Positions 24,342 to 37,878 of a stretch of DNA of 41,975 nucleotides are shown here, piece after piece. The stretch covers positions 1 through 41,975 of the forward strand of contig CAMYYV010000011.1 in assembly GCA_947303625.1 (NCBI GenBank). The letters run 5' to 3'. This stretch comes from an uncultured Bacteroidales bacterium. GTDB taxonomy: Bacteria; Bacteroidota; Bacteroidia; Bacteroidales; F082. How positions within the stretch are numbered: the stretch's first letter is position 1; each line of letters begins with the position of its first letter. The translations under genes were made by a program, and so were the position numbers. The notes under the pieces are model-generated. The model was not told where the DNA came from. It made no database searches and worked only from the letters and a program-made list of their open reading frames with translations.

Positions 24342-24905
24342 ATGTTATCCCTTCCCATCATAGAAATGATCAAGAAAAAATCCGGGCTCGACTTCAGCAA
24401 TGCCAAGGACTTTGAGGTGTTGTCGGAGTCGTTTCCGGCCAGCGACCGATTGGGAGTCAATACCCTGAAACGGTTGATGGGTTATGCCAAGTCACCCATA
24501 GCACCACGTAAAGCCACGCTTGATGCTTTGGCGCATTATCTGGGTTCGTCCTCTTGGGAGGCACTCAGTGGCATGCAACCCGTAGAGAGCGACTGGATGG
24601 AGAAGGCGTTTTTCGCCGATGAGATTCGCGAAGGCACAACGGTGGAGGCTTCATGGCTGCCTAACCGTCATATCGCCTTGCTATGTATTGGCGAGAACAA
24701 ATTCCGAGTGACCGAGAGCCTGAATGGAAAGCTGTTGGTCAACGACGAGGTGAACATCTTCAACTTCCGCTTGGAGTATCCCTTGCAAGTGTTTCAAGTT
24801 GTCCGTAATGGCGAGATTGTGCGTGATGCGGCTGGCAACGAACTGGGTTATGTGGCTGGCCGCCAGAACGGATTGACAGAACTATTCATCAAGGAGGCAG
24901 TATAA
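24342..24905 (+). CDS. Kinase-operon partner protein with N-terminal helical domain
   Basis: A 187-residue cytoplasmic protein. Residues 1-75 (MIKKKSGLDFSNAKDFEVLS, LGVNTLKRLMGY, RKATLDALAHYLGSSSWEAL) resemble a helical HTH-like N-terminal domain often seen in Bacteroidetes regulators, where a 'TLxxLAxYLG..SWExF' pattern is common. Residues 85-187 look like a small beta-rich ligand or partner domain; I do not recognise it. Its stop overlaps the kinase ATG (TAATG), so the two are translationally coupled and probably work together, for example as regulator and kinase. That role is inference. Confidence 0.7.
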   Translation: MLSLPIIEMIKKKSGLDFSNAKDFEVLSESFPASDRLGVNTLKRLMGYAKSPIAPRKATLDALAHYLGSSSWEALSGMQPVESDWMEKAFFADEIREGTTVEASWLPNRHIALLCIGENKFRVTESLNGKLLVNDEVNIFNFRLEYPLQVFQVVRNGEIVRDAAGNELGYVAGRQNGLTELFIKEAV

Positions 24906-26545
24906 TGTGCAATTCCGATTTTATCAGTCCCGCACAACAAAAGCAGGAAGAAGTGCTTTTCGATAGCGGTGGCACCTGTGATTGCTATCGTCTCGTCAAA
25001 GACAATCGTGTGTATTGTGTCAAACGGCCTAAGAAGGACATGCGTTCCTCGGAAGTATACATGAACCTGTTCCGTAAGGAGTTTGAACTCGGCATCGACT
25101 TGGAGCATCCTAACATAGTGCGTTATTTCGCCTACGATGAGGACGAACAAGGCCCTTTCATTCGCATGGACTACATCGATGGTGACAGTCTTGAGGCTTT
25201 TTTGGCCCAGCATCCTGACTATTTCAAAGAGAAAGGGCCCAGGAAACAATTCTGCGACGAATTGTTCTCGGCTTTGTCCTATCTTCACGACAAGAAGATG
25301 CTGCACCTCGACCTCAAACCCAGCAACATCCTCATCACCAACAAAGGCCATCATGTGAAGCTAATTGATTTAGGTTTCGGCTGGAGCGAGAGCTATCTGC
25401 ATGATTTGGGCTTTACCCGTGAGTATTGCGCTCCCGAACAGCAGGCCGCCAAGACCGAGTTGTTTGGTCCTGCCACCGACATCTATGCCTTGGGAATGAT
25501 TCTGCAGCGTTTTGGCTTGGCTAAGAAATCTATAACGCAACGTTGTCTGAAGGAAGATCCAAGAGCGCGTTACCAGAGCATCGATGCTTTACGAAAAGCC
25601 ATGCAACGTAGCGAGACGATAAGAATTTCCTCGAAAGTGGGTCTAGGCTTAGCTGCTGCGCTGCTGATAGGGGCAATTGTTTGGCTGGTGGGTTTCAGGG
25701 AGAAGCCCTTGCCGCCGCGTCCAACATCGCCCGAAGGAACCATCAATGGATTGTTTACCATCAACGAAGCGGGCGACCAGGTGTATTTCTCGAAGGGTAA
25801 CCTGCAATACAAGCCTTCAATCAACACGTGGCGTTTTGCCGAAAACCAGTTTGACTTTATTGGCGGTGACAATGCCAATCACAACTCTGCTGAGAAGTGC
25901 TGCAATTGGTTGGATTTGTTCGCTTGGGGTGCCAGTGGGCGTGACCACGGAGCGATCTGTTTCCAGCCGTGGTGCAGTCGCAATGTTTTTGAAGACGACG
26001 CTTGGCAATATAACGCCTATGGCGTTGACACGCTGAATTTATACGATGGCGACGGTCAGGCTGACTGGGGTTACAATGCCATCAGCAATGGTGGAAATGA
26101 AGAAAACGTATGGCGTACGTTGACCATCGAGGAATGGGATTACATTCTTGAGAAGCGGTCTACTGCCACGGGCATCCGTTATGCCAAGGTTGCCGTTGAC
26201 GGCGTTAGGGGTTTGTTGTTGTTGCCCGACGACTGGGACAGCACCTATTGCCAACTACGGCATTTCAACGACGACGATGTTGACTACATTCACAACAACC
26301 TCACCGAGCCATTCTGGTCGGAGAGGGCGGAGGCTTTAGGGGCAGTATTCCTGCCGGCGGCAGGCATCCGCGACTTCGGTTATGTAGGCTTGGTAGGCAA
26401 ATACGGTCTCTATTGGTCGTCTTCCTGCCTAAACCCCAAAGAGGCCTTGGGCATCTACTTCAGCAACAGTTTCTTCTATCATTCCATCACCACCGACAAA
26501 TGCAGTGGTCGCAGTGTGAGGTTGGTGAGGGACGTGGGGCGTTGA
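24905..26545 (+). CDS. Transmembrane Hanks-type Ser/Thr kinase with lectin-like ectodomain
   Basis: A 546-residue membrane kinase. The cytoplasmic kinase domain (about 15-235) has the lysine K40 (YCVKRPKK), the helix-C glutamate E59, the catalytic loop HLDLKPSN (D136, N141), DLG at 155-157 in place of DFG, and APE at 176-178; the glycine loop is degenerate (SGGTCDCY). One TM helix is at about 245-264. The ectodomain (275-546) has QVYFSKGNLQY, WRFAENQFDFIG, WLDLFAWGASG, VWRTLTIEEWDYIL, GLLLLPDDW, VFLPAAGIRDFG, GLYWSSS and the end GRSVRLVRD, a pattern frequent in Bacteroidales surface proteins with an FGE/C-type-lectin-like fold. It should sense something outside and phosphorylate inside. The first gene of the operon is the likely partner. 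Its 3' end is duplicated at 28354-28446. Confidence 0.85.
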   Translation: MCNSDFISPAQQKQEEVLFDSGGTCDCYRLVKDNRVYCVKRPKKDMRSSEVYMNLFRKEFELGIDLEHPNIVRYFAYDEDEQGPFIRMDYIDGDSLEAFLAQHPDYFKEKGPRKQFCDELFSALSYLHDKKMLHLDLKPSNILITNKGHHVKLIDLGFGWSESYLHDLGFTREYCAPEQQAAKTELFGPATDIYALGMILQRFGLAKKSITQRCLKEDPRARYQSIDALRKAMQRSETIRISSKVGLGLAAALLIGAIVWLVGFREKPLPPRPTSPEGTINGLFTINEAGDQVYFSKGNLQYKPSINTWRFAENQFDFIGGDNANHNSAEKCCNWLDLFAWGASGRDHGAICFQPWCSRNVFEDDAWQYNAYGVDTLNLYDGDGQADWGYNAISNGGNEENVWRTLTIEEWDYILEKRSTATGIRYAKVAVDGVRGLLLLPDDWDSTYCQLRHFNDDDVDYIHNNLTEPFWSERAEALGAVFLPAAGIRDFGYVGLVGKYGLYWSSSCLNPKEALGIYFSNSFFYHSITTDKCSGRSVRLVRDVGR

Positions 26546-26551
26546 GAATGA

Positions 26552-28000
26552 TTATTCCTCAACTTCGGCGAAGAGGTGTCGAGTGGTAATTTCGCTATGA
26601 ACCAATGAGGTATTCGTTCCATTAGCAAGCCCTCTGGGAGTAACAAAAGTGAGAACAGCACCTCTTGCAACCCCAGTGATTTCCATAAAGAGACTTTTAC
26701 GTTCCAACAGTTGCTGTCCGTACGCTTTGGTGATGACAAAAGGTATTTCTGAAAACTTCATTTCCACCAAATGGATGATTTTGTCGGCTCTTTTGATTAC
26801 CAAGTCGATCTGAGCCCCTTTTCGTTGATCGTCTCTAGTAGGCTTGAACCGCCATGAAGAAGCCTCTGTAGCCATTCCCGAGATACCCAAACCTTTCTTG
26901 ATATGAGGCAGGTGTCGAAGGCAAACTTCTTCGAAGGTGAAACCTTCCCAAGAAGCAACCCCTCTGTCGGTAAAGTGGTGTTGCCAGTACTGTTCGTCTC
27001 GCGAGCGATTCTGCTCAACGTAACGGAAATAAAACAAGGTATAAAAGTCTGCCAGACGGTAAAGTGTCAGTTTTGTCTTGTTACCGAATTGGGCGTATGA
27101 GACAATGAAGTCACAACGTTCTAGGTTTTCGAGCATTTTAGAGAGTCCCCCGCCGCTGTAACCCGTTCCTTGTTCGATCTCCTCACGTGTAAAGCCTTCT
27201 CTTTTTTTAGAAAGCAACTTTACAATCGCAACGTATCGATCCGCTTTATTGAAAAGGGCGTTATACAATTCATTGAACTCGTCGCTCAAGTCACCCCCAC
27301 GACGGAAAATTAGCGCATCGACATTTTGGGGCAGACTCAGCTGAGGACGGAGTAAACTCAGGTAATAAGGCACACCACCAAAGAGCATATAACACTGAAG
27401 AATCTGATAGTCATCCCAATCGAAGCCATGGTCCAAAAGATAAGCCTTGCATTCGTTGAGATAAAAAGGTCGCAAATAAATCCTGTGCGTGATGCGGTTG
27501 TGAAGCCCTCCTTGGTTGTCTTCCAATTTGTCCTTCATCCAACTGGTAGCACTGCCGCAAGCCACAAAAACGATGTCATCGTTGTTTTGCACCCAGTTGG
27601 ACCAGAAATACTCCAGTTCATCCACAAACTCACTGCCTTGTGTGTCAATCCATGGCATCTCGTCGAAAAAGACGATTTTCCGTTTTTCTTTGCATTTTTC
27701 CAAGTATTCCGCCAACCGCAAGAAAGCATCGTGCCAAGATTTTAGCTCGGGGATGCTTTTGTCGCCAGAATAGCGCACTAGGGCTTCTCTGAAATTTTGG
27801 AGTTGGACAATTTTCTTTTGTCGGTGTGCTCCAACATAATGAAAGCTGTAGGTGTCGTTGAAGAAACGGCGTACTAAGAAGGTCTTGCCAACGCGCCGGC
27901 GACCATACATGACGATAAATTCTGAACGGTGAGAGTTTACCGCCCATTCCAACTCTTTCCATTCCCGTTCTCTTCCAACGAGTTTGTCTTCGTTTCCCAT
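26552..28000 (-). CDS. Archaeal-ATPase/DUF234-type ATPase, cassette 1
   Basis: A 482-residue P-loop ATPase: Walker A GRRRVGKT at 33-40, Walker B KIVFFDEMPW with D112-E113, a sensor segment VACGSATSW, winged-helix segments (about 275-330) and a C-terminal PD-(D/E)XK-like segment GAQIDLVI...HLVEMKFSE. This is the archaeal ATPase plus DUF234 family, which has expanded in some genomes; its function is unknown, and nuclease activity is only suggested by the fold. Start at 28000 is chosen because a -7 box lies at 28018-28025. It is convergent with the kinase gene with 6 bases between stops, and lies between two copies of the kinase 3' end. Homologous to the protein at 31976-33394. Confidence 0.87.
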   Translation of the reverse strand: MGNEDKLVGREREWKELEWAVNSHRSEFIVMYGRRRVGKTFLVRRFFNDTYSFHYVGAHRQKKIVQLQNFREALVRYSGDKSIPELKSWHDAFLRLAEYLEKCKEKRKIVFFDEMPWIDTQGSEFVDELEYFWSNWVQNNDDIVFVACGSATSWMKDKLEDNQGGLHNRITHRIYLRPFYLNECKAYLLDHGFDWDDYQILQCYMLFGGVPYYLSLLRPQLSLPQNVDALIFRRGGDLSDEFNELYNALFNKADRYVAIVKLLSKKREGFTREEIEQGTGYSGGGLSKMLENLERCDFIVSYAQFGNKTKLTLYRLADFYTLFYFRYVEQNRSRDEQYWQHHFTDRGVASWEGFTFEEVCLRHLPHIKKGLGISGMATEASSWRFKPTRDDQRKGAQIDLVIKRADKIIHLVEMKFSEIPFVITKAYGQQLLERKSLFMEITGVARGAVLTFVTPRGLANGTNTSLVHSEITTRHLFAEVEE

Positions 28001-28017
28001 TTGCTGTAAATTTGTCG

Positions 28018-28025
28018 CAAAGTTA
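28018..28025 (-). promoter_or_regulatory. -7 box for ATPase 1
   Basis: TAACTTTG on the minus strand, 17 bases before the ATG, just downstream of the inverted-repeat array at 28052-28144. Confidence 0.5.
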
Positions 28026-28051
28026 CAACATATTTTCAAAACAGAAAACTA

Positions 28052-28144
28052 TTTTTGTCCAAATCTGATAAAAAATCATAGATTTGGACAAAAAACGAAT
28101 GATTTTCGTCCAAATATATATAAAAATACTTGGATTTGGACAAA
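28052..28144. repeat. Four alternating GTCCAAAT half-sites upstream of ATPase 1
   Basis: Hairpin 1 has arms TTTTTGTCCAAATC (28052-28065) and GATTTGGACAAAAA (28081-28094), perfect over 14 bases. Hairpin 2 has TTTTCGTCCAAAT (28103-28115) and ATTTGGACAAAA (28134-28145). The four half-sites sit about 24-27 bases apart, immediately upstream of the ATPase promoter. Confidence 0.7.
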
Positions 28145-28178
28145 AAAACCATATTAATGAGGGTTGATCTTTTTGAGA

Positions 28179-28245
28179 TTTTTCTGTCAGAAGCCAGCGA
28201 AATCTGCTTTATTTTTCGGGATTTCGTTGGATTATGACGGAGAAA
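28179..28245. repeat. CAGCGAAAT hairpin, copy A
   Basis: Left arm TTTCTGTCAGAAGCCAGCG, right arm TTTCGTTGGATTATGACGG; imperfect pairing with substitutions. Same family as the copies at 31912-31974, 33429-33495 and 33631-33693. The surrounding 28001-28536 has no intact gene. Confidence 0.65.
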
Positions 28246-28353
28246 CAAATCTCACATAAATCCTAAACGAATCTTCGGTTGCCGCATTTCGATGTTTTTC
28301 CGAATTGCAAATGCTGATATTCATGGTTTCCGAATTGAAAATTCGGAGGAACG

Positions 28354-28446
28354 GGCATCTACTTCTGCAATAGTTTCTTCTATCATTCCATCACCACCGA
28401 CAAGTGCGGTGGCCGCAGTGTGAGGTTGGTGAGGGATAGGGAATAA
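28354..28446 (+). pseudogene. Remnant of a kinase-ectodomain 3' end
   Basis: Codes for 30 residues in one frame, starting GIYFCNSFFYHSITTD and ending KCGGRSVRLVRDRE and a stop. It matches the last 31 codons of the kinase gene (from 26450), with five base differences over about 87 bases, three of them silent. Upstream similarity ends abruptly beside a TCCGAATT/AATTCGGA hairpin. After the stop GGAATAA is repeated three times. There is no start codon or upstream part, so it is a dead fragment. Confidence 0.8.
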
Positions 28447-28536
28447 GGAATAAGGAATAAAACATACCTCCGCATATCGCCATTTTGTGAGACGACACGC
28501 AGAGGTATAAGGGAAAAAAGAAAATCCAGGATGGCT

Positions 28537-29292
28537 TTAATAGCCAGTGAATTTGTCAAAGACGTGCTTTTTTAAATTATTGAATTCTTTTTTTGTTAGA
28601 TATAAATCACCATACATCTCTTCCCCCGTCTCATCTAGATAAGCATACAACTCTTTAGTCTTAAATTGCTGTTTTTTGTATCCGATAATTGTCTTTTTCA
28701 CAGGATCAAGAGGAATTGCTATAGTATTTGTGTATTGGTTTTCGGGCCAGTTGACGAAGTCAACAAGGACTGTCAATGCCATCGAAGACCCTTGCAGAAT
28801 AAAGGTTCCTTTTTCCGTAGTACTACCCTCATTAAACATGCAACTATATTCCATGAATCCGCCATTATCAAATACTAGTAAGCTGTGGCACTCATCATCC
28901 TCCCACCAACCTTCCAGCCAACTCATATCTATACCTTCATCTACCGCAAGTGTCGGTGTGTCCTGCACATACTTTGACAACACATAGCCCACGATGCCGT
29001 TGCAGTCAACATGGGTCCATTCGCCTTCGGTGCCCAAAAGGGCAGCACCTTCAGGACCGTTGCGGAGAACGCCGAGGATAGGTGCCTTGGCTTGGGCGGT
29101 TTCACGAATGTTCGCATAACCGTCAAAGGCATTGGCATACACATGGGGGCGTGTGTCAACAGGTTCGGCCTCTTCTATCACCGTTGGGGTCGCTTGTTGA
29201 ACTTGGTTTTCGGTATCCACTGTTTCTTTGTTTTCTGTCTTGCCTTGACCATTGCCGCAAGAAACCATCATGCACAAACCAAGCAGGAGCAT
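28537..29292 (-). CDS. SH3-domain lipoprotein
   Basis: A 251-residue lipoprotein with lipobox MMVSC (Cys12), an acidic low-complexity linker, an SH3b domain at about 50-110 (VYANAFDGYANIRE, VLRNGPEGAALLG, GEWTHVDCNGIVGYV) and an unrecognised beta-rich C-terminal domain with WLEGWWEDDECHSLLVF. The SH3 domain is very close to the one in the protein at 38051-39799. The ATG at 29292 gives an unusually short signal; one extra base in the A7 run at 29306-29312 would join a GTG start and give a standard one (MKKNIYAVMLLLGLC...). Confidence 0.75.
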   Translation of the reverse strand: MLLLGLCMMVSCGNGQGKTENKETVDTENQVQQATPTVIEEAEPVDTRPHVYANAFDGYANIRETAQAKAPILGVLRNGPEGAALLGTEGEWTHVDCNGIVGYVLSKYVQDTPTLAVDEGIDMSWLEGWWEDDECHSLLVFDNGGFMEYSCMFNEGSTTEKGTFILQGSSMALTVLVDFVNWPENQYTNTIAIPLDPVKKTIIGYKKQQFKTKELYAYLDETGEEMYGDLYLTKKEFNNLKKHVFDKFTGY

Positions 29293-29377
29293 TACTGCAT
29301 AGATGTTTTTTTCACGTTGATTTGTTTTAGAGTTATTAGTGATTTGTGATTTACGAGCTGCATGTTAAGTAGATGTG

Positions 29378-29385
29378 CAAAATTA
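29378..29385 (-). promoter_or_regulatory. -7 box for the SH3 lipoprotein gene
   Basis: TAATTTTG on the minus strand, about 85 bases before the ATG at 29292. Confidence 0.45.
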
Positions 29386-29422
29386 GTTTACTATTAAGAC
29401 GCGCGTTCCGTTTCCACAGAAT

Positions 29423-29488
29423 GACGACGAGACGCGGGACGCAAGTCATTGTTCCACCCTCGTGTCTCAAAGTCTCGTGTCTCGTGTC
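29423..29488. repeat. Palindromic intergenic repeat, GGGAC/GAGAC family
   Basis: GACGAGACGCGGGAC on one side, CTCGTGTCTC and AGTCTCGTGTCTCGTGTC on the other; third member of the family at 113-206. Confidence 0.55.
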
Positions 29489-29553
29489 AATTGATTATGC
29501 ACTTTTATTTTGAACACTTACTAAATATATCCGTTACGTTAAAACTGACATGA

Positions 29554-31500
29554 TTATCGAATAGTGTCAATGGCGCCATCACCATTGGTGTCAATTCCTA
29601 TTCTGTCAATTGTTCCATTTCCGTCAATGTCAACACCGACGGCATCGATACTTCCGTTGCCATCAACATCGACACCAACCGTATCAATGGCGCCGTCGCC
29701 ATCGGTGTCCACTCCAATTGAGTCTATGGTCCCGTCTCCATCAGTATCCACTCCGACAGTATCTATCGCTCCGTCGCCATCTGTGTCCATGCCAACGGCG
29801 TCAAAAGTTCCGTCGCCGTCAACATCAACCATTGTGGTGTCCATTACTCCATCGCCGTCGGTATCGACTGTCATCGTGTCGATGGCGCCGTCGCCGTCAG
29901 TGTCCATGCCGACTGCATCAATGGTGCCATCGCCATCTACATCAACCATCGTGGTTTCCATTACCCCATCTCCGTCAGCATCGACCGCTATTGTGTCGAT
30001 TGAACCGTTGCCGTCAGTGTCCATGCCGACTGCATCAATGGTGCCGTCGCCATCTACATCAACTGCCATGGTATCCATTGCTCCATCGCCGTCAGCATCG
30101 ACTGCTATCGAGTCGATGGCACCGTCTCCATCAGTATCCATGCCAATAGCGTCAAAAGTGCCATCTCCGTCAACATCGACCGCCATCGAGTCGAAAGTGC
30201 CGTCACCATCGGTGTCCATTCCGACCGTGTCCAAAACTCCGTCACCATCCGTATCCATGCCCACCGTGTCGAAAACTCCATCACCGTCTGTGTCCATTTC
30301 AATTGTATCAAAAACTCCATCACCATCGGTATCTACCATTAACGCATCATCAATTCCGTCACCATCGAGATCCACCATATCTGGGTCAAGATCATCTGCA
30401 TCGAGATCATCAATTAATAGACTTCCTGTTGCCACAGAAGCCACAGCCCCCGCAATTTTAATTCCCCTCGTTATTTTCTTATTTCTACTCAGAACTTCCT
30501 TATTTCCGACAGCGTCGGGAACAAAATCTAGAAACGAATCAGGAACGAGCCCATTAAATGAAATCCTGTATTCCTCAGAAGAGGTACTTATAACATACAT
30601 GCATGATAATTTCTTAAGTTCTTCTCTAATGGATAGTATGTCGGCTCTATTTAATTGCAAAATTTCGCTATCTGCTTCCAAGGATCTTTGGCCCTTTTCT
30701 CCAACAGCGCTATTTAACCCCGAAAATTTATTAAATATCAAACGTTTGTCAGTTATATATAACGTTCCATTTGTATTAAAAATTCTGCCTTCCAAGGCTG
30801 CATTTCCTGCGAAAAGAACAGACTCGCCCTTAAGAAGATTGACATTCAACACACATCCGTCCATATTTGTTATAGAACAAATGGCGCCTACGAATAGAGC
30901 TGGATTTTTTGTAATGCTGAAATCATATATCTTTCCTGCCGCAGTTATTGAATACCTCATTCCTCCCGTTCCGCCAAGTTCTCTAATTCTTGAAATCTCT
31001 GAAAAATCCTTGACAGATATCTGTTCTAATAGTTTTGGTGGTTCTTGCTGTTTGTTTTTATTTCCCATATTACCAATAGCACCAAGAACACCTTTTGACT
31101 CATATATCCTCAAGGTTTTATTTGTGAGAACAATCCTTACTGGCTTTTTAACAAACTTTTCTCCAAACCCAGCTCTTCCACTATATACTTTCCTTTCTTT
31201 TTCTCCTTGTTGTAGCAGTTTTGGGGTGATTTTTGCTGTAATTTTTGTTGCTTCAGATCTCTCTTTAGCAGAATCTTTAATTTTCGAAGTCAATGCAGAA
31301 GCTTTTGAAAACGCTTGTTTGCTAAACAATTTAGCCTTACCAAATAATTTTGAAGAAAAACCTTCACCTTGATTTGAAGTTTCGCTAGAAGGTTGATTAG
31401 AAGACTGTACGCCTAAATTCTTTCCACAATTCGGACAAAAACTATCATCAGAATTCAAACTATGTCCACAATTTGGACAAAAATTGTACTTTTCGCTCAT
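29554..31500 (-). CDS. Zinc-ribbon protein with 21 DxDGDG calcium-loop repeats
   Basis: A 648-residue protein of unknown function. Residues 8-25 form a zinc ribbon (CPNC, CPNC). Residues 30-95 are a basic, Ser/Lys/Ala-rich linker; about 100-370 hold one or two PH-like domains (KKPVRIVLTNKTLRIYES; GRIFNTNGTLYITDKRLIF). From residue 375 to the end come 21 units of 12 residues, such as DTDGDGAIDTVG, each an EF-hand or thrombospondin-3-like Ca loop (a few have N for D). No signal peptide is present, so the repeats appear to be cytoplasmic, which is odd for a Ca-binding array. The PH-like part is AT-rich and the repeat part GC-rich, suggesting a fusion or late expansion. A broken fragment of the repeat lies at 37965-38033. 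Confidence 0.85.
   Translation of the reverse strand: MSEKYNFCPNCGHSLNSDDSFCPNCGKNLGVQSSNQPSSETSNQGEGFSSKLFGKAKLFSKQAFSKASALTSKIKDSAKERSEATKITAKITPKLLQQGEKERKVYSGRAGFGEKFVKKPVRIVLTNKTLRIYESKGVLGAIGNMGNKNKQQEPPKLLEQISVKDFSEISRIRELGGTGGMRYSITAAGKIYDFSITKNPALFVGAICSITNMDGCVLNVNLLKGESVLFAGNAALEGRIFNTNGTLYITDKRLIFNKFSGLNSAVGEKGQRSLEADSEILQLNRADILSIREELKKLSCMYVISTSSEEYRISFNGLVPDSFLDFVPDAVGNKEVLSRNKKITRGIKIAGAVASVATGSLLIDDLDADDLDPDMVDLDGDGIDDALMVDTDGDGVFDTIEMDTDGDGVFDTVGMDTDGDGVLDTVGMDTDGDGTFDSMAVDVDGDGTFDAIGMDTDGDGAIDSIAVDADGDGAMDTMAVDVDGDGTIDAVGMDTDGNGSIDTIAVDADGDGVMETTMVDVDGDGTIDAVGMDTDGDGAIDTMTVDTDGDGVMDTTMVDVDGDGTFDAVGMDTDGDGAIDTVGVDTDGDGTIDSIGVDTDGDGAIDTVGVDVDGNGSIDAVGVDIDGNGTIDRIGIDTNGDGAIDTIR
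29557..30378 (-). repeat. 36-base tandem repeat array coding for calcium loops
   Basis: About 21 copies of a 36-base unit inside the preceding gene, each coding for D-x-D-G-D/N-G. Near-identical neighbouring units suggest expansion by slippage or unequal crossing-over. Confidence 0.85.
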
Positions 31501-31666
31501 GTTGTTGTATTATTGGTTTATTTATATGATCTTTCCCAAAATCAAATCCTCTTAAACTGTTGGTTCCTATTTCGTTCTTTTCCAAACCAAATTCTTAGCA
31601 ATCGTTGCAACGATGATTGTGAACGCAAAACAATTCAGCTACATACGTTTTTCTGTTGTCACAAGG

Positions 31667-31674
31667 CAAAATTA
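31667..31674 (-). promoter_or_regulatory. -7 box for the calcium-repeat protein
   Basis: TAATTTTG on the minus strand, about 165 bases before the ATG at 31500. This implies a long leader; a nearer promoter is not seen. Confidence 0.4.
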
Positions 31675-31754
31675 CAATCTTTTTCATTATAAAAAACAAG
31701 CCAACATTGTTATTGATACTTAATAATCCAAAACAGATATAAAAATAGTATCCC

Positions 31755-31795
31755 AAATGGATAATTTGGGAGGAAAATGGATGAAGTGGATGGGG
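31755..31795. repeat. Direct repeat ATGGATAATT..., copy 1
   Basis: AAATGGATAATTTGGGAGG then AAAATGGATGAAGTGGATG. A second copy begins at 35284 after the IS element, with AAATGGATAATTCAGGAG and AAAATGGATGGAATGGAT. The first 17 bases resemble the start of the HTH gene at 24215. Confidence 0.5.
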
Positions 31796-31905
31796 CTAGG
31801 GGAAAGAATCACCCGAACAAGGCCTCCATAATGAGTTTGACGGGGCTGTCGCTGGAATGGGCGTTTTCTGTCACGACATTGAAAAAGCGGATGGGGGAAG
31901 AATGA
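31757..31905 (+). pseudogene. Internally deleted HTH-gene remnant beside ATPase 2
   Basis: Starts with ATGGATAATT (similar to the HTH gene start) and ends with a frame coding SVTTLKKRMGEE and TGA, which matches the HTH protein end SAMKERIGEE. About 150 bases compared with 252 for the intact gene; the middle is unrelated and contains in-frame stops in the other frames. It runs directly into hairpin B. Confidence 0.55.
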
Positions 31906-31911
31906 TTACAC

Positions 31912-31974
31912 TTTGTGCTAGAAACCAGCGAAATCTGTCTTTTTTTTCGACATTTCGCTGATTACTGACATAAA
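31912..31974. repeat. CAGCGAAAT hairpin, copy B (3' side of ATPase 2)
   Basis: Core arms CAGCGAAAT / ATTTCGCTG with a T-rich loop; the outer stem has mismatches. Ends two bases before the ATPase stop codon, so it may also terminate that gene's transcript. Confidence 0.65.
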
Positions 31975-31975
31975 A

Positions 31976-33394
31976 TTATTCGTTAAACAAATCATTTCCA
32001 GTAATTTGACATTGTATATCGTCTGAAAAAGCATTACGAACCAATCCTTGCGAAGTAATCATGGTGAGATGGATGGCTTTTTGCGTTTCAGTCGCTTCAA
32101 TAAAACGCATTTTCTTGTTTTGCAGCACAGCATCATATGTTGTGTCAATCTTGAATGGCGATTGCGTATATTTCATCTCACAAAGGTTGATTACCCCATC
32201 GTTTCGGTCTATCAGCAAATCAATTTGAGCTCCACTTTGCTCTCCATTCCCCTCAATCCACCAGGCATATTCACTACTGATGATACCAGCCACACCCAAC
32301 TTGGCCTTAATCTGTCGGCTATGCAACAAACAGACGCGTTCAAATGCCAGTCCGCACCAATTGAAATAGGCCGGAGAATCAAGACTCTTACTCCAGAAAT
32401 GTTCGTCATTGACCAAGTTGTCGCGCACAAACTTAAAATAAAACAGCGTATAGGCATCGACAAGCTGGAACAAGGCTCCTTTGCTCTTCTTTCCGATAGC
32501 GTTGTATTTACGGATAAAACCGCAGTTTTCAAGATCCTCAAGCATGTCGCTTAGCTTGCCGTTATCCATCAATCCTGTCCCGGCAACGATTTCAGCACGG
32601 GTCATGCCCGCTTTCTTCTTTCCAAGTGCCTCGATGATGGCGAGATATTTATCTGGATGTTTGAAAAGCGAGGCATACAACTCATCGTATTCTTCCCTCA
32701 GTTCCCCGTCTCTGGAAAAGAAGAGATTGTCTATATTCAAGGCTAGGCTCTTCGACTTATCCAACAACGACCAATAGTAGGCCACGCCACCCAGTGCCAT
32801 ATAGCCCTCCATGAGCTGCTTTCTATTCATTCCCAGTCTTCGCTGACGGGCGTATAACTCGCACTCGTGCAAAGTGAAGGGTTGCAAATGAATTCTGTAG
32901 GTCAGGCGGTTATGCAGTCCTTTCTTGTTTTTCAACAGTTTTTTGATAATCCACGACGTGGCAGAGCCGCAGGCAATGAGCACCACATCCTTTCGGGCAG
33001 AGGCGAAGCCGTTCCAGAAGTGTTCCAACGCGGACAGGAAGCTCGACCTTGGCGCGTCCATCCAAGGCATTTCATCAATGAACACCACTTTCCGCTTTTC
33101 TTTCGACCGCTCTATCAGTTCTTCCAACATGTCAAAAGCCTCCAGCCAGTTGGCAGGCAACGGTGCTTTCTCATACCCTTGTCTGCGCAAGGAAGATTGG
33201 AAGTTTTGCAATTGTTCTCGGGTGTTCTTTTTCGCCAATCCAGTATGTGCAAACGTGAATTTGTAATTGAACTGTTCCCTGATGAGAAAGGTTTTTCCGA
33301 CGCGGCGGCGACCATAAACCACCACAAACTCAGAGTATTCCGACTCAAATGCTTCACGCAGTTTCCGCTGCTCTTCTTTTCTTCCTATCAGCAT
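31976..33394 (-). CDS. Archaeal-ATPase/DUF234-type ATPase, cassette 2
   Basis: A 472-residue homologue of the ATPase at 26552-28000: Walker A GRRRVGKT at 28-35, Walker B KVVFIDEMPW, sensor ACGSATSW, winged-helix segments, and the C-terminal PD-(D/E)XK-like GAQIDLLI...NLCEMKYT. Function unknown; roles in mobile or defence elements are suggested for the family but not shown here. A -7 box at 33417-33424 lies 22 bases before the ATG, and a perfect 25-base palindrome lies just upstream. The gene is bounded on both sides by hairpins B and C and on both flanks by HTH-gene remnants. Confidence 0.87.
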   Translation of the reverse strand: MLIGRKEEQRKLREAFESEYSEFVVVYGRRRVGKTFLIREQFNYKFTFAHTGLAKKNTREQLQNFQSSLRRQGYEKAPLPANWLEAFDMLEELIERSKEKRKVVFIDEMPWMDAPRSSFLSALEHFWNGFASARKDVVLIACGSATSWIIKKLLKNKKGLHNRLTYRIHLQPFTLHECELYARQRRLGMNRKQLMEGYMALGGVAYYWSLLDKSKSLALNIDNLFFSRDGELREEYDELYASLFKHPDKYLAIIEALGKKKAGMTRAEIVAGTGLMDNGKLSDMLEDLENCGFIRKYNAIGKKSKGALFQLVDAYTLFYFKFVRDNLVNDEHFWSKSLDSPAYFNWCGLAFERVCLLHSRQIKAKLGVAGIISSEYAWWIEGNGEQSGAQIDLLIDRNDGVINLCEMKYTQSPFKIDTTYDAVLQNKKMRFIEATETQKAIHLTMITSQGLVRNAFSDDIQCQITGNDLFNE

Positions 33395-33416
33395 ATAGTA
33401 AGTGTTTTTGAGACTA

Positions 33417-33424
33417 CAAAGATA
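33417..33424 (-). promoter_or_regulatory. -7 box for ATPase 2
   Basis: TATCTTTG on the minus strand; its -33 region falls inside the arm of hairpin C. Confidence 0.5.
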
Positions 33425-33428
33425 GTTT

Positions 33429-33495
33429 TTTTTCTGTCAGAAACCAGCGAAATCTGTCTTTTTTTTCGACATTTCGCTGGTTTCTGACAGAAAAA
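33429..33495. repeat. CAGCGAAAT hairpin, copy C, perfect 25-base palindrome
   Basis: Arms 33429-33453 and 33471-33495 are perfectly complementary over 25 bases (outer TTTTTCTGTCAG, inner CCAGCGAAAT), loop of 17 bases with a T8 run. It overlaps the promoter region of ATPase 2. By far the best-conserved copy of the family. Confidence 0.8.
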
Positions 33496-33533
33496 CAAGA
33501 GATGTTATAGAAAAAGAGTCAAGTTGTGGCAGT

Positions 33534-33623
33534 TCGGTTTCCATCGCCATGCTCTTCAATTTCTTCCAGCATTATTCGGCGGAAGTGACAGCGGCATTGA
33601 AAGAGCGGATGGGGGAAGAATGA
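33534..33623 (+). pseudogene. HTH-gene 3' remnant
   Basis: One frame codes for VSIAMLFNFFQHYSAEVTAA and LKERMGEE then TGA, matching the HTH protein end (ISKAMNFNFFQYYSAAFLSAMKERIGEE) at about 60 percent. There is no start or N-terminal part. It is followed, like the remnant at 31757-31905, by a hairpin (copy D). Confidence 0.7.
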
Positions 33624-33630
33624 TTACATT

Positions 33631-33693
33631 TTGTGTCAGGAACCAGTGAAATCTGTCTTCTTTTTCGGGATTTCGCTGGGTTTTGACAGGGAA
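33631..33693. repeat. CAGCGAAAT hairpin, copy D
   Basis: Arms TGTCAGGAACCAGTGAAAT and ATTTCGCTGGGTTTTGACA pair with a few mismatches and G-T wobbles. Confidence 0.65.
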
Positions 33694-33871
33694 TGGAGGA
33701 GAATCCCTACTCCAAGAAATAGAGATTAGGGAACTTACCTTACCCTTCAATTCCATGGTAAAAACAACGATATTTCATGCCAGGCATTTTATTCACCCAT
33801 CATGTCTAAAGCGATTATAACCAAAAAAAAATTATTGGTGTCCGCTAAAACTATAGGGAGGTGAAAAAAAC

Positions 33872-33905
33872 AGGCTGAAAACTCCGAGGAGGTTCCAGCC
33901 TTTTT
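33872..33905 (+). terminator. Hairpin plus T run inside the IS left end
   Basis: AGGCTG...CAGCCT with an inner CTCC/GGAG, then TTTTT. It would block transcription entering the element from outside. Confidence 0.6.
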
Positions 33906-33908
33906 CGT

Positions 33909-33916
33909 TACCTTTG
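33909..33916 (+). promoter_or_regulatory. -7 box for the transposase gene
   Basis: TACCTTTG, 25 bases before the transposase ATG. Confidence 0.5.
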
Positions 33917-33941
33917 TTTCTGCTACAAAACAGGAATAACG

Positions 33942-35177
33942 ATGGGCAAAGGTACGCATTTTATCGGACAGCCGATGTTTGGTCAGCTGATTTCTTTGAT
34001 TGACAAGTCAAAAGTTCTCGGATTCAGCCGCGAGAAGGGCGGGGAGAGGTACGTGAAGCACTTCGACGCATGGCAGCACCTGGTGGTCATGCTCTATGCG
34101 GTCATCAAGCGCTTCGACTCCCTGCGTGAGATCACGGACTCCATGTTCCCCGAGGCTCGCAAGCTGTCGCATCTGGGGATAGGCATGATGCCCAGGCGTT
34201 CGACGCTCTCGGATGCCAACGCCAGGAGGCCCCAAGACGTCTTCGAGTCGACCTACCGCGACTTGTACGCCACCTACAAGGGCGAGCTTTCCTCGGACAG
34301 CCGAAAGCGGCAGGTGCCGAAGTGGCAGGGCCGCCTCCAGATCATAGACTCCACAACCATCACGCTTTTCTCCAACCTGCTTTTCAAGGGCGTGGGGCGG
34401 CATCCGAAAACGGGCAGGAAGAAAGGCGGCATAAAGGTCCACGCCAACATACACGCCAACGAGGGGGTGCCGTCGGACATCCGCTTCACGTCGGCGGCCA
34501 CCAACGACAGCTTCATGCTTGTCCCGTCCAACTATGCGCCGGGGGACATCCTGGCCATCGACAGGGCGTACATCGACTACGCCAAGTTCGAGGAGCTCAC
34601 GAAACGGGGCGTGACCTACGTCACGAAGATGAAGAAAAGCCTCGTGTACACCGTCGAGAGCGACAGGATGTACATGTCCCCGGCGGGACTGATGGAGTAC
34701 AGGGAACAGCATGTGACCTTCACGAAGCATGTCAAGGACGGCGAGGACATAGTCCACCATGCGCGGATTGTCACCTACGTCGACATCAAGAAGACAAGGT
34801 TGAGACTCGTGTCGCTCCTGACCAACGACATGGAGATGGGTGTGGAGGACATTGTGGCGGTTTACCGCAAGAGATGGGAGATAGAGCTGCTGTTCAAACA
34901 GCTCAAGCAGAACTTCCCACTGCGATACTTCTACGGCGAGAGCGCCAACGCCATCAAGATACAGATATGGGTCACGCTGATAGCCAACCTGCTGCTCATG
35001 GTCATACAGAAGCGCATCAAGCGCACGTGGAGCTTCTCCGGACTGGCCACCATGTTCAGGATCATGCTCATGTACTATGTCAACTGCTACACCTTCTTCG
35101 AAGAGCCGGAAAAGGACTGGCTGGCGATACTCAAGACAACGGATCCATCACCCCCAGAGCCGACCCTGTTTGACTGA
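33942..35177 (+). CDS. IS4-family DDE transposase
   Basis: A 411-residue transposase with an N-terminal DUF4372-type domain (about 5-75) and a DDE core: D136 (IIDSTTI), D207 (AIDRAY) and E315. The IS4-group YREK signature is complete and correctly spaced (Y308, R311, E315, K322). No frameshift or internal stop, and terminal repeats are intact, so it may be active. Confidence 0.95.
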   Translation: MGKGTHFIGQPMFGQLISLIDKSKVLGFSREKGGERYVKHFDAWQHLVVMLYAVIKRFDSLREITDSMFPEARKLSHLGIGMMPRRSTLSDANARRPQDVFESTYRDLYATYKGELSSDSRKRQVPKWQGRLQIIDSTTITLFSNLLFKGVGRHPKTGRKKGGIKVHANIHANEGVPSDIRFTSAATNDSFMLVPSNYAPGDILAIDRAYIDYAKFEELTKRGVTYVTKMKKSLVYTVESDRMYMSPAGLMEYREQHVTFTKHVKDGEDIVHHARIVTYVDIKKTRLRLVSLLTNDMEMGVEDIVAVYRKRWEIELLFKQLKQNFPLRYFYGESANAIKIQIWVTLIANLLLMVIQKRIKRTWSFSGLATMFRIMLMYYVNCYTFFEEPEKDWLAILKTTDPSPPEPTLFD

Positions 35178-35283
35178 GGGGAGGGCTTACTTTTCCAAGC
35201 AACCTTCCTCATCGCCTATTTATTGGCTTTCCGAACACGTCATCTAATGCTCTTTTACTTTTAGCGGACAGCAATATATCTAA

Positions 35284-35392: not shown

Positions 35393-36118
35393 TCAGTAAC
35401 TGCGGCATGGCATTGAGGGAGGCACCGTGTTCTCCAAAAGCCGATTCACTACCTCCCGTACACTCCTCTTCTTGTCGCATTGCGTCTTCAGATAAGCAGA
35501 CCTTCGTTCCAAATACACCCTCTTGTTCACTTCCAGCATCATGGACTGATAAGTGAACGTGCAAGTTGGTGCCTCGGAATTGCTATACGGATAGTTGATG
35601 CCCACGGAATAGCCGTTGTCCTCGAAGAGGTTCACAACATATTCCAGCAACTCTTTGCCCGGCTTAGACCAATCCTCATTGAACCCGATGCAGATGTCAA
35701 CGTCGCCCATGTCCTCTGGGAATGAATGACAGTCCAGCAGCAGCGCACCCTCGCACAGGTTGTCCCTTAACTTTTGCTGGTGGCTGTCCCACAACTGCAG
35801 TAGCTCCGCCTCATGTCGCTTGGGCACTTGCCGCCTGTAGCCGTCGAAATGTCGATAAATGATGCCTTGCCCAATGTCCTCCATCGGGTCATCCCAAAGT
35901 CGTTCCGCATCCACGATGAATCTCGAAAACGGGAAGCGCACCGTCCTGATGTTGGGATGTCTGAACCCGTGGAAGAGATAGTCCGTGTGCCAGTCGGTCA
36001 GCCGGAACACCACGTCGTTGATGAAACGTTCGTCAATCCGCCATCCGCTCAGCTTGTCGTCATACAAGCCCTCGATGGAGGCATGAGGCTCATTCAATAC
36101 AATTCTGTTGTAGTGCAT
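35393..36118 (-). CDS. N-formylglutamate amidohydrolase-like protein
   Basis: A 241-residue soluble protein of the N-formylglutamate amidohydrolase (FGase) superfamily, zinc-type hydrolases. Motifs include NEPHAS near the start, WRIDERFINDVVFRLTDWHTDY, RFPFSRFIVDAERL and LLLDCHSFPEDM. True FGases act in histidine degradation; no hut genes are nearby, so the substrate is open. The leader is about 100 bases and contains two small hairpins (TACCAC-C-GTGGTA and GTGCC-TTTG-GGCAC). Confidence 0.82.
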   Translation of the reverse strand: MHYNRIVLNEPHASIEGLYDDKLSGWRIDERFINDVVFRLTDWHTDYLFHGFRHPNIRTVRFPFSRFIVDAERLWDDPMEDIGQGIIYRHFDGYRRQVPKRHEAELLQLWDSHQQKLRDNLCEGALLLDCHSFPEDMGDVDICIGFNEDWSKPGKELLEYVVNLFEDNGYSVGINYPYSNSEAPTCTFTYQSMMLEVNKRVYLERRSAYLKTQCDKKRSVREVVNRLLENTVPPSMPCRSY

Positions 36119-36226
36119 AAGTTATCATTTTAGTTAGTTCTTAACTCACATCGTTTTACCACCGTGGTATAACTCGGTACTCGGTTGGTGTGCCTTTGGG
36201 CACTCTTGATGTCTTTATTTCGGCTG

Positions 36227-36387: not shown

Positions 36388-37701
36388 TTAATCTTTCAAA
36401 CACCCAATTGGCACAACAAGCACTCCGTCTTCAGGGCGTTTGTAAGCATAGTCTCCAATGCCTGTCAACACCATCAGAAACGAGGGCTTTTTCATTTTGG
36501 TGGTATCTATTTTGTCCGAAAGCGATTTTAGGTTTGCAGCACCACTGTTGATAAGGTCGGCTCCACCTATCTTGATTTCAATCAGACCGTATGAGCCATT
36601 GCGTAGATGCACCACGGCATCACACTCCAGATTGTTCTTGTCACGGTAATGGTATACTTTCCCGTCAAGCGACTCCGCATAGACTCGCAAATCCCTCACC
36701 GCCAGGGTCTCGAAAATAAGGCCAAAAGTCTCCATGTCGTTAATCAAATCCTTGGGACCCATGCCCAGAGCAGCAGTGGCAATAGACGGGTCGATGAAAT
36801 AACGGGTGTCAGACGTCCTGATGGCCGTCTTACTCCGCAAGTTTGGGTTCCATGCCACCGAGTCTTCGATGACAAATATCTCCTTTAGGGCCTTCACATA
36901 GCTATAGACGGTATTCTCCGACATTTGCTCGTCACCATTCGTCTTGATGTCGGCCAAAATGGTTCCTGCCGTTGCCTGGCTGGCTTGGTTTCGGGCATAC
37001 GATCGCATAATACGCTTGGCCAGCTCCTCATCCCTTTCCACATCATCAACCCTCTTGATATCGTTACTGACAACAGCGTCGAAATAATTGAACGCCTGCG
37101 CCAGTGCGGCTTTTTCGCTCTTTTTCAGCACGGCCTTCGGCCACCCCCCACGACAGGTTAGATATGCGAGCCTTTCAAGGTCAATATGGCTTTCCCCGTC
37201 GATTGAATCCGCATTCTCAAATAGTTTTCCGAGGCTTACCATACCCGTCGAATCTTCCGACTCCCACAAAGTCATCGTACGTAGCTTCAAGCGGGAGATT
37301 CTTCCCGTACCGGAATGGTGGATCTGCTCCTCCTCAATCAGATTCCCATCCGCATCCTTTTTCGGTTTAGGCGGAACGGCAGAGCCAGTAAGGATGAACT
37401 GTCCGTCGTCGTCACGCTTATCCACCTCGTTTCTTACTGCATCCCAAAACTGGGGCGCAATCTGCCATTCGTCAATCAGTCTGGGAGTGGCACCGGCAAG
37501 AAGCCGCGAAATGTTTGTGCGCGCAAGGGCCAAATTCTGGCTAAGCGTATCGGGGTCGGCCATCGACAGAATGCTACCAGCCTGTTGCTTAGCCAAGGTG
37601 GTTTTGCCACAATACTTTGGTCCCTCTATCAAAACCGCCCCCGATGACTCCAACTGGTCGGTAAGCATTTGGTCTGCAATACGTTTTTTGTATTCTTTCA
37701 T
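36388..37701 (-). CDS. AAA_14/DUF4143-type ATPase, cassette 3
   Basis: A 437-residue P-loop ATPase of a family distinct from the other two: Walker A GPKYCGKT at 27-34, Walker B PRLIDEWQ, FILTGSAVPP sensor, a helical middle, and a DUF4143 C-terminus with RYFIDPSIATAALG and the PD-(D/E)XK-like ECDAVVHL...YGLIEIKIG. Function unknown. The start at 37701 is chosen over an upstream in-frame ATG at 37749 because a -7 box lies at 37725-37732. Directly upstream is an array of 23-base tandem repeats. Confidence 0.85.
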   Translation of the reverse strand: MKEYKKRIADQMLTDQLESSGAVLIEGPKYCGKTTLAKQQAGSILSMADPDTLSQNLALARTNISRLLAGATPRLIDEWQIAPQFWDAVRNEVDKRDDDGQFILTGSAVPPKPKKDADGNLIEEEQIHHSGTGRISRLKLRTMTLWESEDSTGMVSLGKLFENADSIDGESHIDLERLAYLTCRGGWPKAVLKKSEKAALAQAFNYFDAVVSNDIKRVDDVERDEELAKRIMRSYARNQASQATAGTILADIKTNGDEQMSENTVYSYVKALKEIFVIEDSVAWNPNLRSKTAIRTSDTRYFIDPSIATAALGMGPKDLINDMETFGLIFETLAVRDLRVYAESLDGKVYHYRDKNNLECDAVVHLRNGSYGLIEIKIGGADLINSGAANLKSLSDKIDTTKMKKPSFLMVLTGIGDYAYKRPEDGVLVVPIGCLKD

Positions 37702-37724
37702 AATTGCGCGTTTTTTTATCGCGG

Positions 37725-37732
37725 CAAAGATA
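37725..37732 (-). promoter_or_regulatory. -7 box for ATPase 3
   Basis: TATCTTTG on the minus strand, 23 bases before the ATG. The repeat array at 37768-37878 lies immediately upstream. Confidence 0.5.
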
Positions 37733-37767
37733 CGACTTTTTTCTGACAATCAACTAATTCAATAAAT

Positions 37768-37878
37768 TTTGATGTGGCAGTTGGCCGATTTTTGGTGTGG
37801 CAGTTGGCCGATTTTTGGTGTGGAAGTTGGCCGATTTTTGGTGTGGCAGTTGGCTGATTTTTGGTGTGGCAGTTGGCC
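37768..37878. repeat. 23-base tandem repeat array upstream of ATPase 3
   Basis: Four full units of GATTTTTGGTGTGGCAGTT plus GGCC (37787-37878) and a partial unit at the left (37768-37786), with one or two substitutions between units. The period is not a multiple of three and no gene covers it, so it is not coding. Confidence 0.8.

What the first reader, a model, noticed from the sequence alone, without database searches (positions are those of the whole stretch)
26449..33693. Two DUF234 ATPase genes each lie between duplicated 3' ends of another gene, in the same arrangement
Seen: ATPase 1 (minus, 26552-28000) abuts the 3' end of the plus-strand kinase gene, and beyond its own 5' side lies a second copy of that 3' end (28354-28446, five differences). 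ATPase 2 (minus, 31976-33394) abuts a 3' end of an HTH gene plus hairpin (31757-31974), and beyond its 5' side lies a second HTH 3' end plus hairpin (33534-33693). In both, the duplicated ends point the same way and the ATPase is convergent with the first. Inference: the ATPase plus its upstream repeats is a small cassette that inserts at the 3' ends of genes and carries or creates a copy of the end.
Basis: partly seen in the sequence, partly recalled or inferred. Interest (0 to 1): 0.72.

Follow-up and report, generated by a model that had tools for sequence, protein, structure and literature searches.

The report
Hairpin-ended mobile ATPase-nuclease genes
Two ATPase-nuclease genes in this bacterium belong to a large family, now listed as candidate virus-defence genes, whose members often sit between matching DNA hairpins and have inserted next to the ends of other genes, copying a few dozen bases of the target, although no known transposase was found in them.

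Summary
Each ATPase has an AAA+ domain fused to a PD-(D/E)XK nuclease domain (PADLOC family PDC-S27, a candidate defence gene). Of 48 related genes tested in the window's genus, 45 have a direct repeat within 250 bp on both sides, by eye mostly a 50-70 nt hairpin. Over 130 distinct genes from many genera, 70 have such repeats, against 5 of 214 control ORFs.

Homology between copies at different sites ends at the hairpins. Three occupied sites have unoccupied counterparts in other genomes, with one target copy, no hairpin and no ATPase; the occupied sites carry duplications of 25, 62 and 67 bp, all at gene 3' ends. The window's ATPase 1 sits between 84-bp copies of a kinase 3' end, but only 2-17 bp of its empty junction could be checked.

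Shown: a mobile unit with hairpin ends and long, variable target duplications. Inferred: its own protein moves it. Against that: 24 of 36 hairpins of this type lie away from such a gene, some between other defence genes; 60 of 130 genes show no duplicate; paralogues in one genome reach only 59.4% identity (66 pairs). Nine literature searches showed no account of this mobility.

The parts
24905..26545 (+). protein kinase-domain gene whose 3' end is the target of element 1
26449..26532 (+). target copy A (84 bp, inside the intact kinase gene)
26552..28000 (-). ATPase 1: AAA+ ATPase_2 / DUF234, PDC-S27 family
   Evidence: Pfam, PADLOC E = 3.9e-186
28052..28146 (.). two hairpins of another sequence (28052-28094, 28103-28146) in the 5' region of ATPase 1
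   Evidence: z = -6.9 for the first
28179..28248 (.). element hairpin, 5' side of ATPase 1
   Evidence: z = -5.6
28353..28436 (+). target copy B (orphan copy of the kinase 3' end), directly after the element edge shared with L090
31757..31909 (+). decayed remnant of the small 'HTH' gene (start and 3' end)
   Evidence: repeat matches, start read by eye
31910..31975 (.). element hairpin a, 3' side of ATPase 2
   Evidence: z = -3.6
31976..33394 (-). ATPase 2: AAA+ ATPase_2 with C-terminal PD-(D/E)XK domain, PDC-S27 family
   Evidence: (E = 1.3e-201)
33429..33495 (.). element hairpin b, 5' side of ATPase 2; 25-bp perfect arms, 17-nt loop
   Evidence: z = -11.9
33534..33627 (+). 3'-end remnant of the small 'HTH' gene (residues 56-83)
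33628..33693 (.). hairpin c next to that remnant
   Evidence: z = -5.1

Best explanation
Each ATPase gene is the only gene of a small mobile element whose ends are DNA hairpins, repeated in direct orientation. The element inserts preferentially beside the ends of other genes and leaves a long duplication of the target (25-67 bp proved at three sites; up to 118 bp where only the occupied site was seen), so the neighbouring gene stays intact. Most likely the encoded protein acts on its own ends: the AAA+ module assembles on the hairpins or target, the PD-(D/E)XK domain makes two widely staggered nicks in the target, and host repair fills the gaps, giving the long duplication. The 5' hairpin lies just upstream of a promoter-like box, so the protein may also limit its own expression. 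SHOWN: insertion, target duplication, hairpin borders, conserved catalytic motifs. INFERRED: that this protein is the mobiliser, and every chemical step.
For: Empty sites: 25-bp repeat in Prevotella sp. tc2-28 (L175/G173), unoccupied in G248 (98% over 376 bp, one copy) and G295 (88%); 67-bp repeat in G062 (L090), unoccupied in G052, G084, G075 (93, 90, 90%); 62-bp repeat in G052 (L069), unoccupied in G037, G058, G071 (84, 84, 81%). These eight loci show no ATPase match in the DNA held and none of the hairpin core motifs tested. Borders: the window element 2 and G087 align (83.5%) from 31912 to 33494, the outer hairpin edges; elsewhere in the 16 kb compared only hairpin copies, short ATPase 1 cross-matches and one 28-bp match appear. 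L062 and L063 share a 96.8% element with both flanks different. Repeats on both sides: 45 of 48 genus genes; 70 of 130 distinct genes against 14 of 600 mismatched flanks and 5 of 214 control ORFs. Window: three of the five differences between the kinase-end copies clearly arose on the orphan copy (six or seven of seven relatives agree with the other copy), one is unclear (4 of 7), and at one the orphan is closer to the relatives. Walker and nuclease residues K34, D107, E108, D392, E406, K408 are invariant in 24 sequences; the C-terminal model matches PD-(D/E)XK nucleases. Hairpins 89-97% against gene 83-85% identity among three related elements.
Against: 60 of 130 family genes show no direct repeat; in a wider set only 17 of 82 have paired hairpins by the strict test. 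Of 36 window-type hairpins listed, 12 lie within 200 bp of an S27 gene and 24 do not. The same hairpin brackets an Abi_2 gene and a DUF4143 ATPase gene in G066/G060, and other loci of these families carry direct repeats (5 of 30, 6 of 29), so the machinery may not be this protein. No near-identical copies inside one genome among the loci fetched: best of 66 pairs 59.4%. Hairpin type is not strictly tied to protein type: the two window ATPases, 44% identical, share one hairpin. Unoccupied sites are in other species, and deletion between the repeats would restore the same sequence. No excision product and no experiment.
Confidence: 0.5

Rival explanations
1. Passenger model: the ATPase is a defence gene carried as cargo. 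Hairpin-bounded single-gene units are moved in trans by an unidentified recombinase or transposase, much as integron cassettes are moved by an integrase encoded elsewhere.
For: The same hairpin brackets three gene families; two of them lie in one tandem array (hairpin-DUF4143 ATPase-hairpin-Abi_2-hairpin, L088). The Abi_2 unit is found hairpin-to-hairpin at another place in G060 (91%), and G061 has the array without the DUF4143 unit and with one hairpin fewer. All three families are in PADLOC: PDC-S27, PDC-S01, AbiD. 24 of 36 hairpins are not beside an S27 gene. One copy per type per genome in the pairs tested.
Against: Repeats on both sides are the rule for S27 genes in the genus (45 of 48) but hairpin pairs are rare for S01 (0 of 30 by the test, the query's own locus by eye) and Abi_2 (2 of 29, both already known from L088 and L093). 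S27 and S01 are both described as ATPase-nuclease fusions (PMC12988326, section 20 read), so two of the three bracketed families share the proposed chemistry.
Confidence: 0.35
2. Recombination model: incoming DNA carrying the gene with its old neighbourhood recombines at a shared gene end, leaving the displaced end as an orphan copy; no dedicated insertion machinery.
For: Repeat copies differ by 0-15%, and 3 of 5 kinase-end differences are synonymous.
Against: Window and G062 share the same element edge but have different target duplicates; unoccupied sites hold one copy with both flanks continuous; the window's orphan copy carries most of the clear changes.
Confidence: 0.09
3. Static model: the hairpins are operators or terminators of the ATPase gene and the duplicated gene ends are unrelated remnants of paralogues.
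For: A TAnnTTTG box lies 28-42 bp before the ATG in 35 of 48 distinct genes, directly after the 5' hairpin in those printed; 'HTH' and kinase genes have several copies; 'HTH' paralogues flank the element in G085 without adjoining it.
Against: Hairpin on the 3' side as well; homology between copies stops at the hairpins; unoccupied sites. The arms have T at the 5' and A at the 3' end, so no terminator U-tract follows the stem.
Confidence: 0.05

Closest known systems
PDC-S27 phage-defence candidate (ATPase_2/DUF234; PADLOC)
   Same: both window proteins hit the PADLOC profile end to end; described in print as an ATPase fused to a PD-(D/E)XK domain (PMC12988326, section 20 read)
   Different: the passages seen (PMC12988326, PMC13356809) treat it as a defence gene; none of them mentions hairpins, target duplications or mobility
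REP/REPIN palindromes with RAYT transposases
   Same: palindromic ends, lone palindromes beside gene 3' ends, one linked gene
   Different: no Y1 (HUH) model in the linked gene; four palindromes in the own assembly; target duplications (their absence in IS200/RAYT movement is recalled)
Insertion sequences (DDE type)
   Same: single gene, repeated ends, target duplication, defined borders
   Different: no transposase model in the protein; direct hairpins rather than ordinary terminal inverted repeats; duplications of 25-67 bp and longer, variable (short fixed lengths for DDE elements are recalled)
Integron gene cassettes (attC)
   Same: single genes separated by hairpins, presence or absence of one gene plus one hairpin (L088 against L037)
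   Different: insertion elsewhere with target duplication; integrase and attC boxes not looked for
Homing endonuclease genes; R2-type restriction-like endonuclease
   Same: selfish-looking nuclease gene; the C-terminal domain is of the same broad fold as the R2 protein's endonuclease (Foldseek rank 5, E = 0.015)
   Different: target is duplicated, not split; no reverse transcriptase model in the protein; AAA+ domain present

Membership tests
PDC-S27 | full-length match to the PADLOC profile | tested here: met
   E = 3.9e-186, 1.3e-201 and 1.6e-190 for ATPase 1, ATPase 2, L175 protein
PDC-S27 | anti-phage activity | not testable with these tools
   PMC12988326 passage: experimental validation pending for most PDCs
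AAA+ (ATPase_2) with PD-(D/E)XK nuclease | Walker A/B and D...ExK motif intact | tested here: met
AAA+ (ATPase_2) with PD-(D/E)XK nuclease | nuclease fold of the C-terminal domain | tested here: met
Insertion sequence | target-site duplication | tested here: met
   25, 62, 67 bp against unoccupied sites
Insertion sequence | recognised transposase (DDE, HUH, serine, tyrosine) | tested here: not met
   Pfam scan of both window proteins: only AAA/ATPase_2, DUF234 and HTH_IclR models at E <= 0.001
REPIN/RAYT | Y1 transposase linked to high-copy palindromes | tested here: not met
   no Y1 model in the linked genes; four copies in the assembly
Integron cassette | attC site and integron integrase | not tested
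   no search for either was made
Homing endonuclease gene | insertion that splits its recognition site without duplication | tested here: not met
   target duplicated at three sites

The most novel reading that the evidence does not exclude
PDC-S27 genes, counted among the commonest defence candidates of archaea and rumen bacteria, are a new class of autonomous mobile element: a single AAA+/PD-(D/E)XK protein that recognises DNA hairpins as its ends, inserts at gene ends with duplications of tens of bases, can mobilise other hairpin-bounded defence genes (DUF4143 ATPases, Abi_2) in trans, and restricts itself to one copy per type per genome.
Probability: 0.33. Interest if true: 0.93.

Novelty: categorically new. 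Interest (0 to 1): 0.78.

Why it matters
Thousands of PDC-S27 loci are being counted as antiviral defence (2865 in one rumen survey, 3503 in archaea in another; passages read in PMC13356809 and PMC12988326). If they are mobile elements, or cargo of a hairpin-cassette system, those counts need a second reading, and the spread of defence genes in Bacteroidales gains a concrete vehicle. Insertion without a recognised transposase and with long, variable target duplications would be new chemistry. The question is directly testable, because borders, unoccupied sites and conserved catalytic residues are now defined. If only the passenger model is right, the novelty falls to a new variant of a gene-cassette system.
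Full report

THE OBSERVATION. The best hairpin has 25-bp perfect arms and a 17-nt loop; folding z-scores of the four copies run from -3.6 to -11.9. It occurs four times in the assembly, all in this stretch; weaker partial matches elsewhere have E >= 0.036. ATPase 2 lies between two of them, the 3' one adjoining the stop codon, the 5' one ending about 35 bp before the start codon.

IT IS COMMON IN THE GENUS. Of 48 testable relatives of ATPase 2 in the genus (best matches), 45 have a direct repeat on both sides within 250 bp. By eye these are mostly hairpins; their sequence differs between subtypes while the two copies at one locus agree. In a wider set from genome records titled Bacteroidales, Prevotella, Kiritimatiellae, Verrucomicrobia and others (a few belong to the same genus) the association is weaker: 17 of 82 by a strict hairpin test, against 0 of 300 mismatched flanks and 0 of 223 control ORFs; 34 of 80 with any direct repeat within 800 bp, against 3 of 170 control ORFs and 1 of 300 mismatched. 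Pooled with 600-bp flanks, 70 of 130 distinct genes have repeats on both sides, 56 hairpin-like and 23 not (9 both), 60 none, against 5 of 214 control ORFs and 14 of 600 mismatched flanks.

THE UNIT HAS MOVED. Window element 2 and its 92%-identical counterpart in G087 align from the outer edge of one hairpin to the outer edge of the other (31912-33494, 83.5%); outside that, the 16 kb compared show only further hairpin copies, short ATPase 1 cross-matches and one 28-bp match. In G087 the unit lies between the convergent genes rlmL and pth (names by eye); among 29 other loci the aligned coding ends are 3-17 bp apart in 10. In G085 the same element lies beside an 'HTH' gene. Elements L062 and L063 are 96.8% identical with both flanks different.

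TARGET DUPLICATION AT THREE SITES. In Prevotella sp. tc2-28 (L175, genome G173) the element lies between two copies of 25 bp that hold the last codons and stop of an HTH_3 gene. Genome G248 has the same place, 98% identical over 376 bp, with one copy and no element; G295 likewise at 88%. G209 has the same insertion (ATPase 99%) with a 32-bp repeat. In G062 (L090), ATPase 1's close relative lies between copies of 67 bp spanning the 3' ends of two convergent genes; G052, G084 and G075 have one copy and nothing between (93, 90, 90%). In G052 (L069) the repeat is 62 bp, the 3' end of another gene, and G037, G058 and G071 are unoccupied (84, 84, 81%). These eight loci show no ATPase match in the DNA held and none of the hairpin motifs tested. 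Where only the occupied site is known, repeats were seen for example in L209 (36 bp, identical, ending in the stop codon), L181 (54), L222 (71, a gene start), L206 (99, a gene start), L192 (118), L163 (36, intergenic) and L215 (48, intergenic) (gene positions by eye).

THE WINDOW'S OWN SITES. Element 1 shares its right edge with the G062 element although the sequences beyond differ. Copy B at 28353 begins exactly there. Against seven related kinases, three of the five differences clearly arose on copy B, the orphan, one is unclear, and at one the orphan agrees better with the relatives. After copy B the sequence resembles what follows the kinase in relatives, but only for 2-17 bp, so the empty site is not fully shown. 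In five genomes (G020, G070, G007, G067, G084) a hairpin of the window type, without an S27 gene beside it, follows the same kinase's end by 2-8 bp; G018 and G052 have a different hairpin there (by eye). The site is thus used repeatedly. The 3' hairpin of element 1 is missing in the window but present in its 91% relative L087. For element 2 the 'HTH' duplicate may be paralogue debris.

MECHANISM. The hairpins are border, and probably operator: a TAnnTTTG box lies 28-42 bp before the ATG in 35 of 48 distinct genes, directly after the 5' hairpin in the loci printed (that this is the Bacteroidetes -7 element is recalled). Long, variable duplications suggest two distant nicks in opposite strands followed by fill-in. 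The protein has the two activities one would ask for, a motor and a nuclease, judged by motif and fold, and the hairpins are better conserved than the gene between them (89-97% against 83-85%). That the protein does this is inference.

EVIDENCE THAT COMPLICATES IT. Of 36 window-type hairpins listed, 24 do not lie within 200 bp of an S27 gene. Some bracket other genes. In G066 (L088) the order is hairpin, DUF4143 ATPase (PDC-S01), hairpin, Abi_2 (AbiD), hairpin. The Abi_2 unit recurs hairpin-to-hairpin in G060 (91%), and G061 has the Abi_2 side joined to the left flank with one hairpin and no DUF4143 gene. This resembles a cassette array. Over the genus such hairpin pairs are rare for these families: 0 of 30 S01 loci by the test (the query's own locus by eye) and 2 of 29 Abi_2 loci, both known already; direct repeats of any kind occur in 5 of 30 and 6 of 29, one of them a long tandem duplicate. 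Inside single genomes no two S27 proteins exceed 59.4% identity in 66 pairs, unlike ordinary insertion sequences; the pairs cover only loci fetched here.

WHAT IS KNOWN. PMC12988326 (passages and section 20 read) counts 3503 S27 in archaea and 4562 in bacteria, calls S27 and S01 ATPases fused to a PD-(D/E)XK domain, and says validation is pending for most such candidates. PMC13356809 (passages read) counts 2865 in rumen genomes. Nine literature searches turned up no account of its mobility; the library lacks most subscription papers and preprints.

VERDICT. The element fails a defining feature of insertion sequences, REPIN/RAYT and homing genes as tested, while sharing traits with each. I file it as a mobile element of no known class whose mobiliser is not yet identified.

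Noticed in passing
L088 6221-8956 (G066); L093 5045-6238 (G060); L037 400-465 (G061): Window-type hairpins bracket a DUF4143 ATPase gene (PDC-S01) and an Abi_2 gene (AbiD) in a tandem array; the units occur apart or are missing one by one in other genomes, like cassettes.
   Followed up: partly
L363 (G053:C39:67800-69300): The target site used by the L090 element holds about 190 bp of other DNA in G053, including a damaged window-type hairpin, with about 16 bp of the site repeated: perhaps a decayed element at the same site.
   Followed up: partly
window 33833-35276: Insertion sequence with DDE_Tnp_1 and DUF4372 transposase (33942-35177) and 21-bp terminal repeats; a start of the small 'HTH' gene directly follows its right end, so the IS sits in that debris.
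   Followed up: no
window 37767-37878: About five head-to-tail copies of a 23-bp unit lie upstream of the DUF4143 ATPase gene 36388-37749 (minus strand; PDC-S01); no flanking duplicate.
   Followed up: partly
window 36120-36217: SAM-I/IV riboswitch on the minus strand (60.3 bits), upstream of an ORF at 35393-36118.
   Followed up: no
window 29554-31500: 648-aa ORF with a zinc ribbon and a long array of 39-bp (13-residue, D-x-D-G-D-G type) repeats.
   Followed up: no
rlmL-pth junction in L098-L126: By eye this convergent junction holds palindromes of several unrelated types in different species, including a GTCATTGCGAGG...CAATGAC type, and two loci carry about 780-800 bp of other DNA there: an insertion hotspot.
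   Followed up: partly
L089, L095, L096, L266, L270: Hairpins of the window type sit 2-8 bp after the end of the kinase gene in five genomes without an S27 gene beside them, possibly scars of lost elements.
   Followed up: partly
L080 1697-4897: A 1066-aa ORF used as control lies between 97-bp repeats that are 99% identical; perhaps another mobile unit.
   Followed up: no
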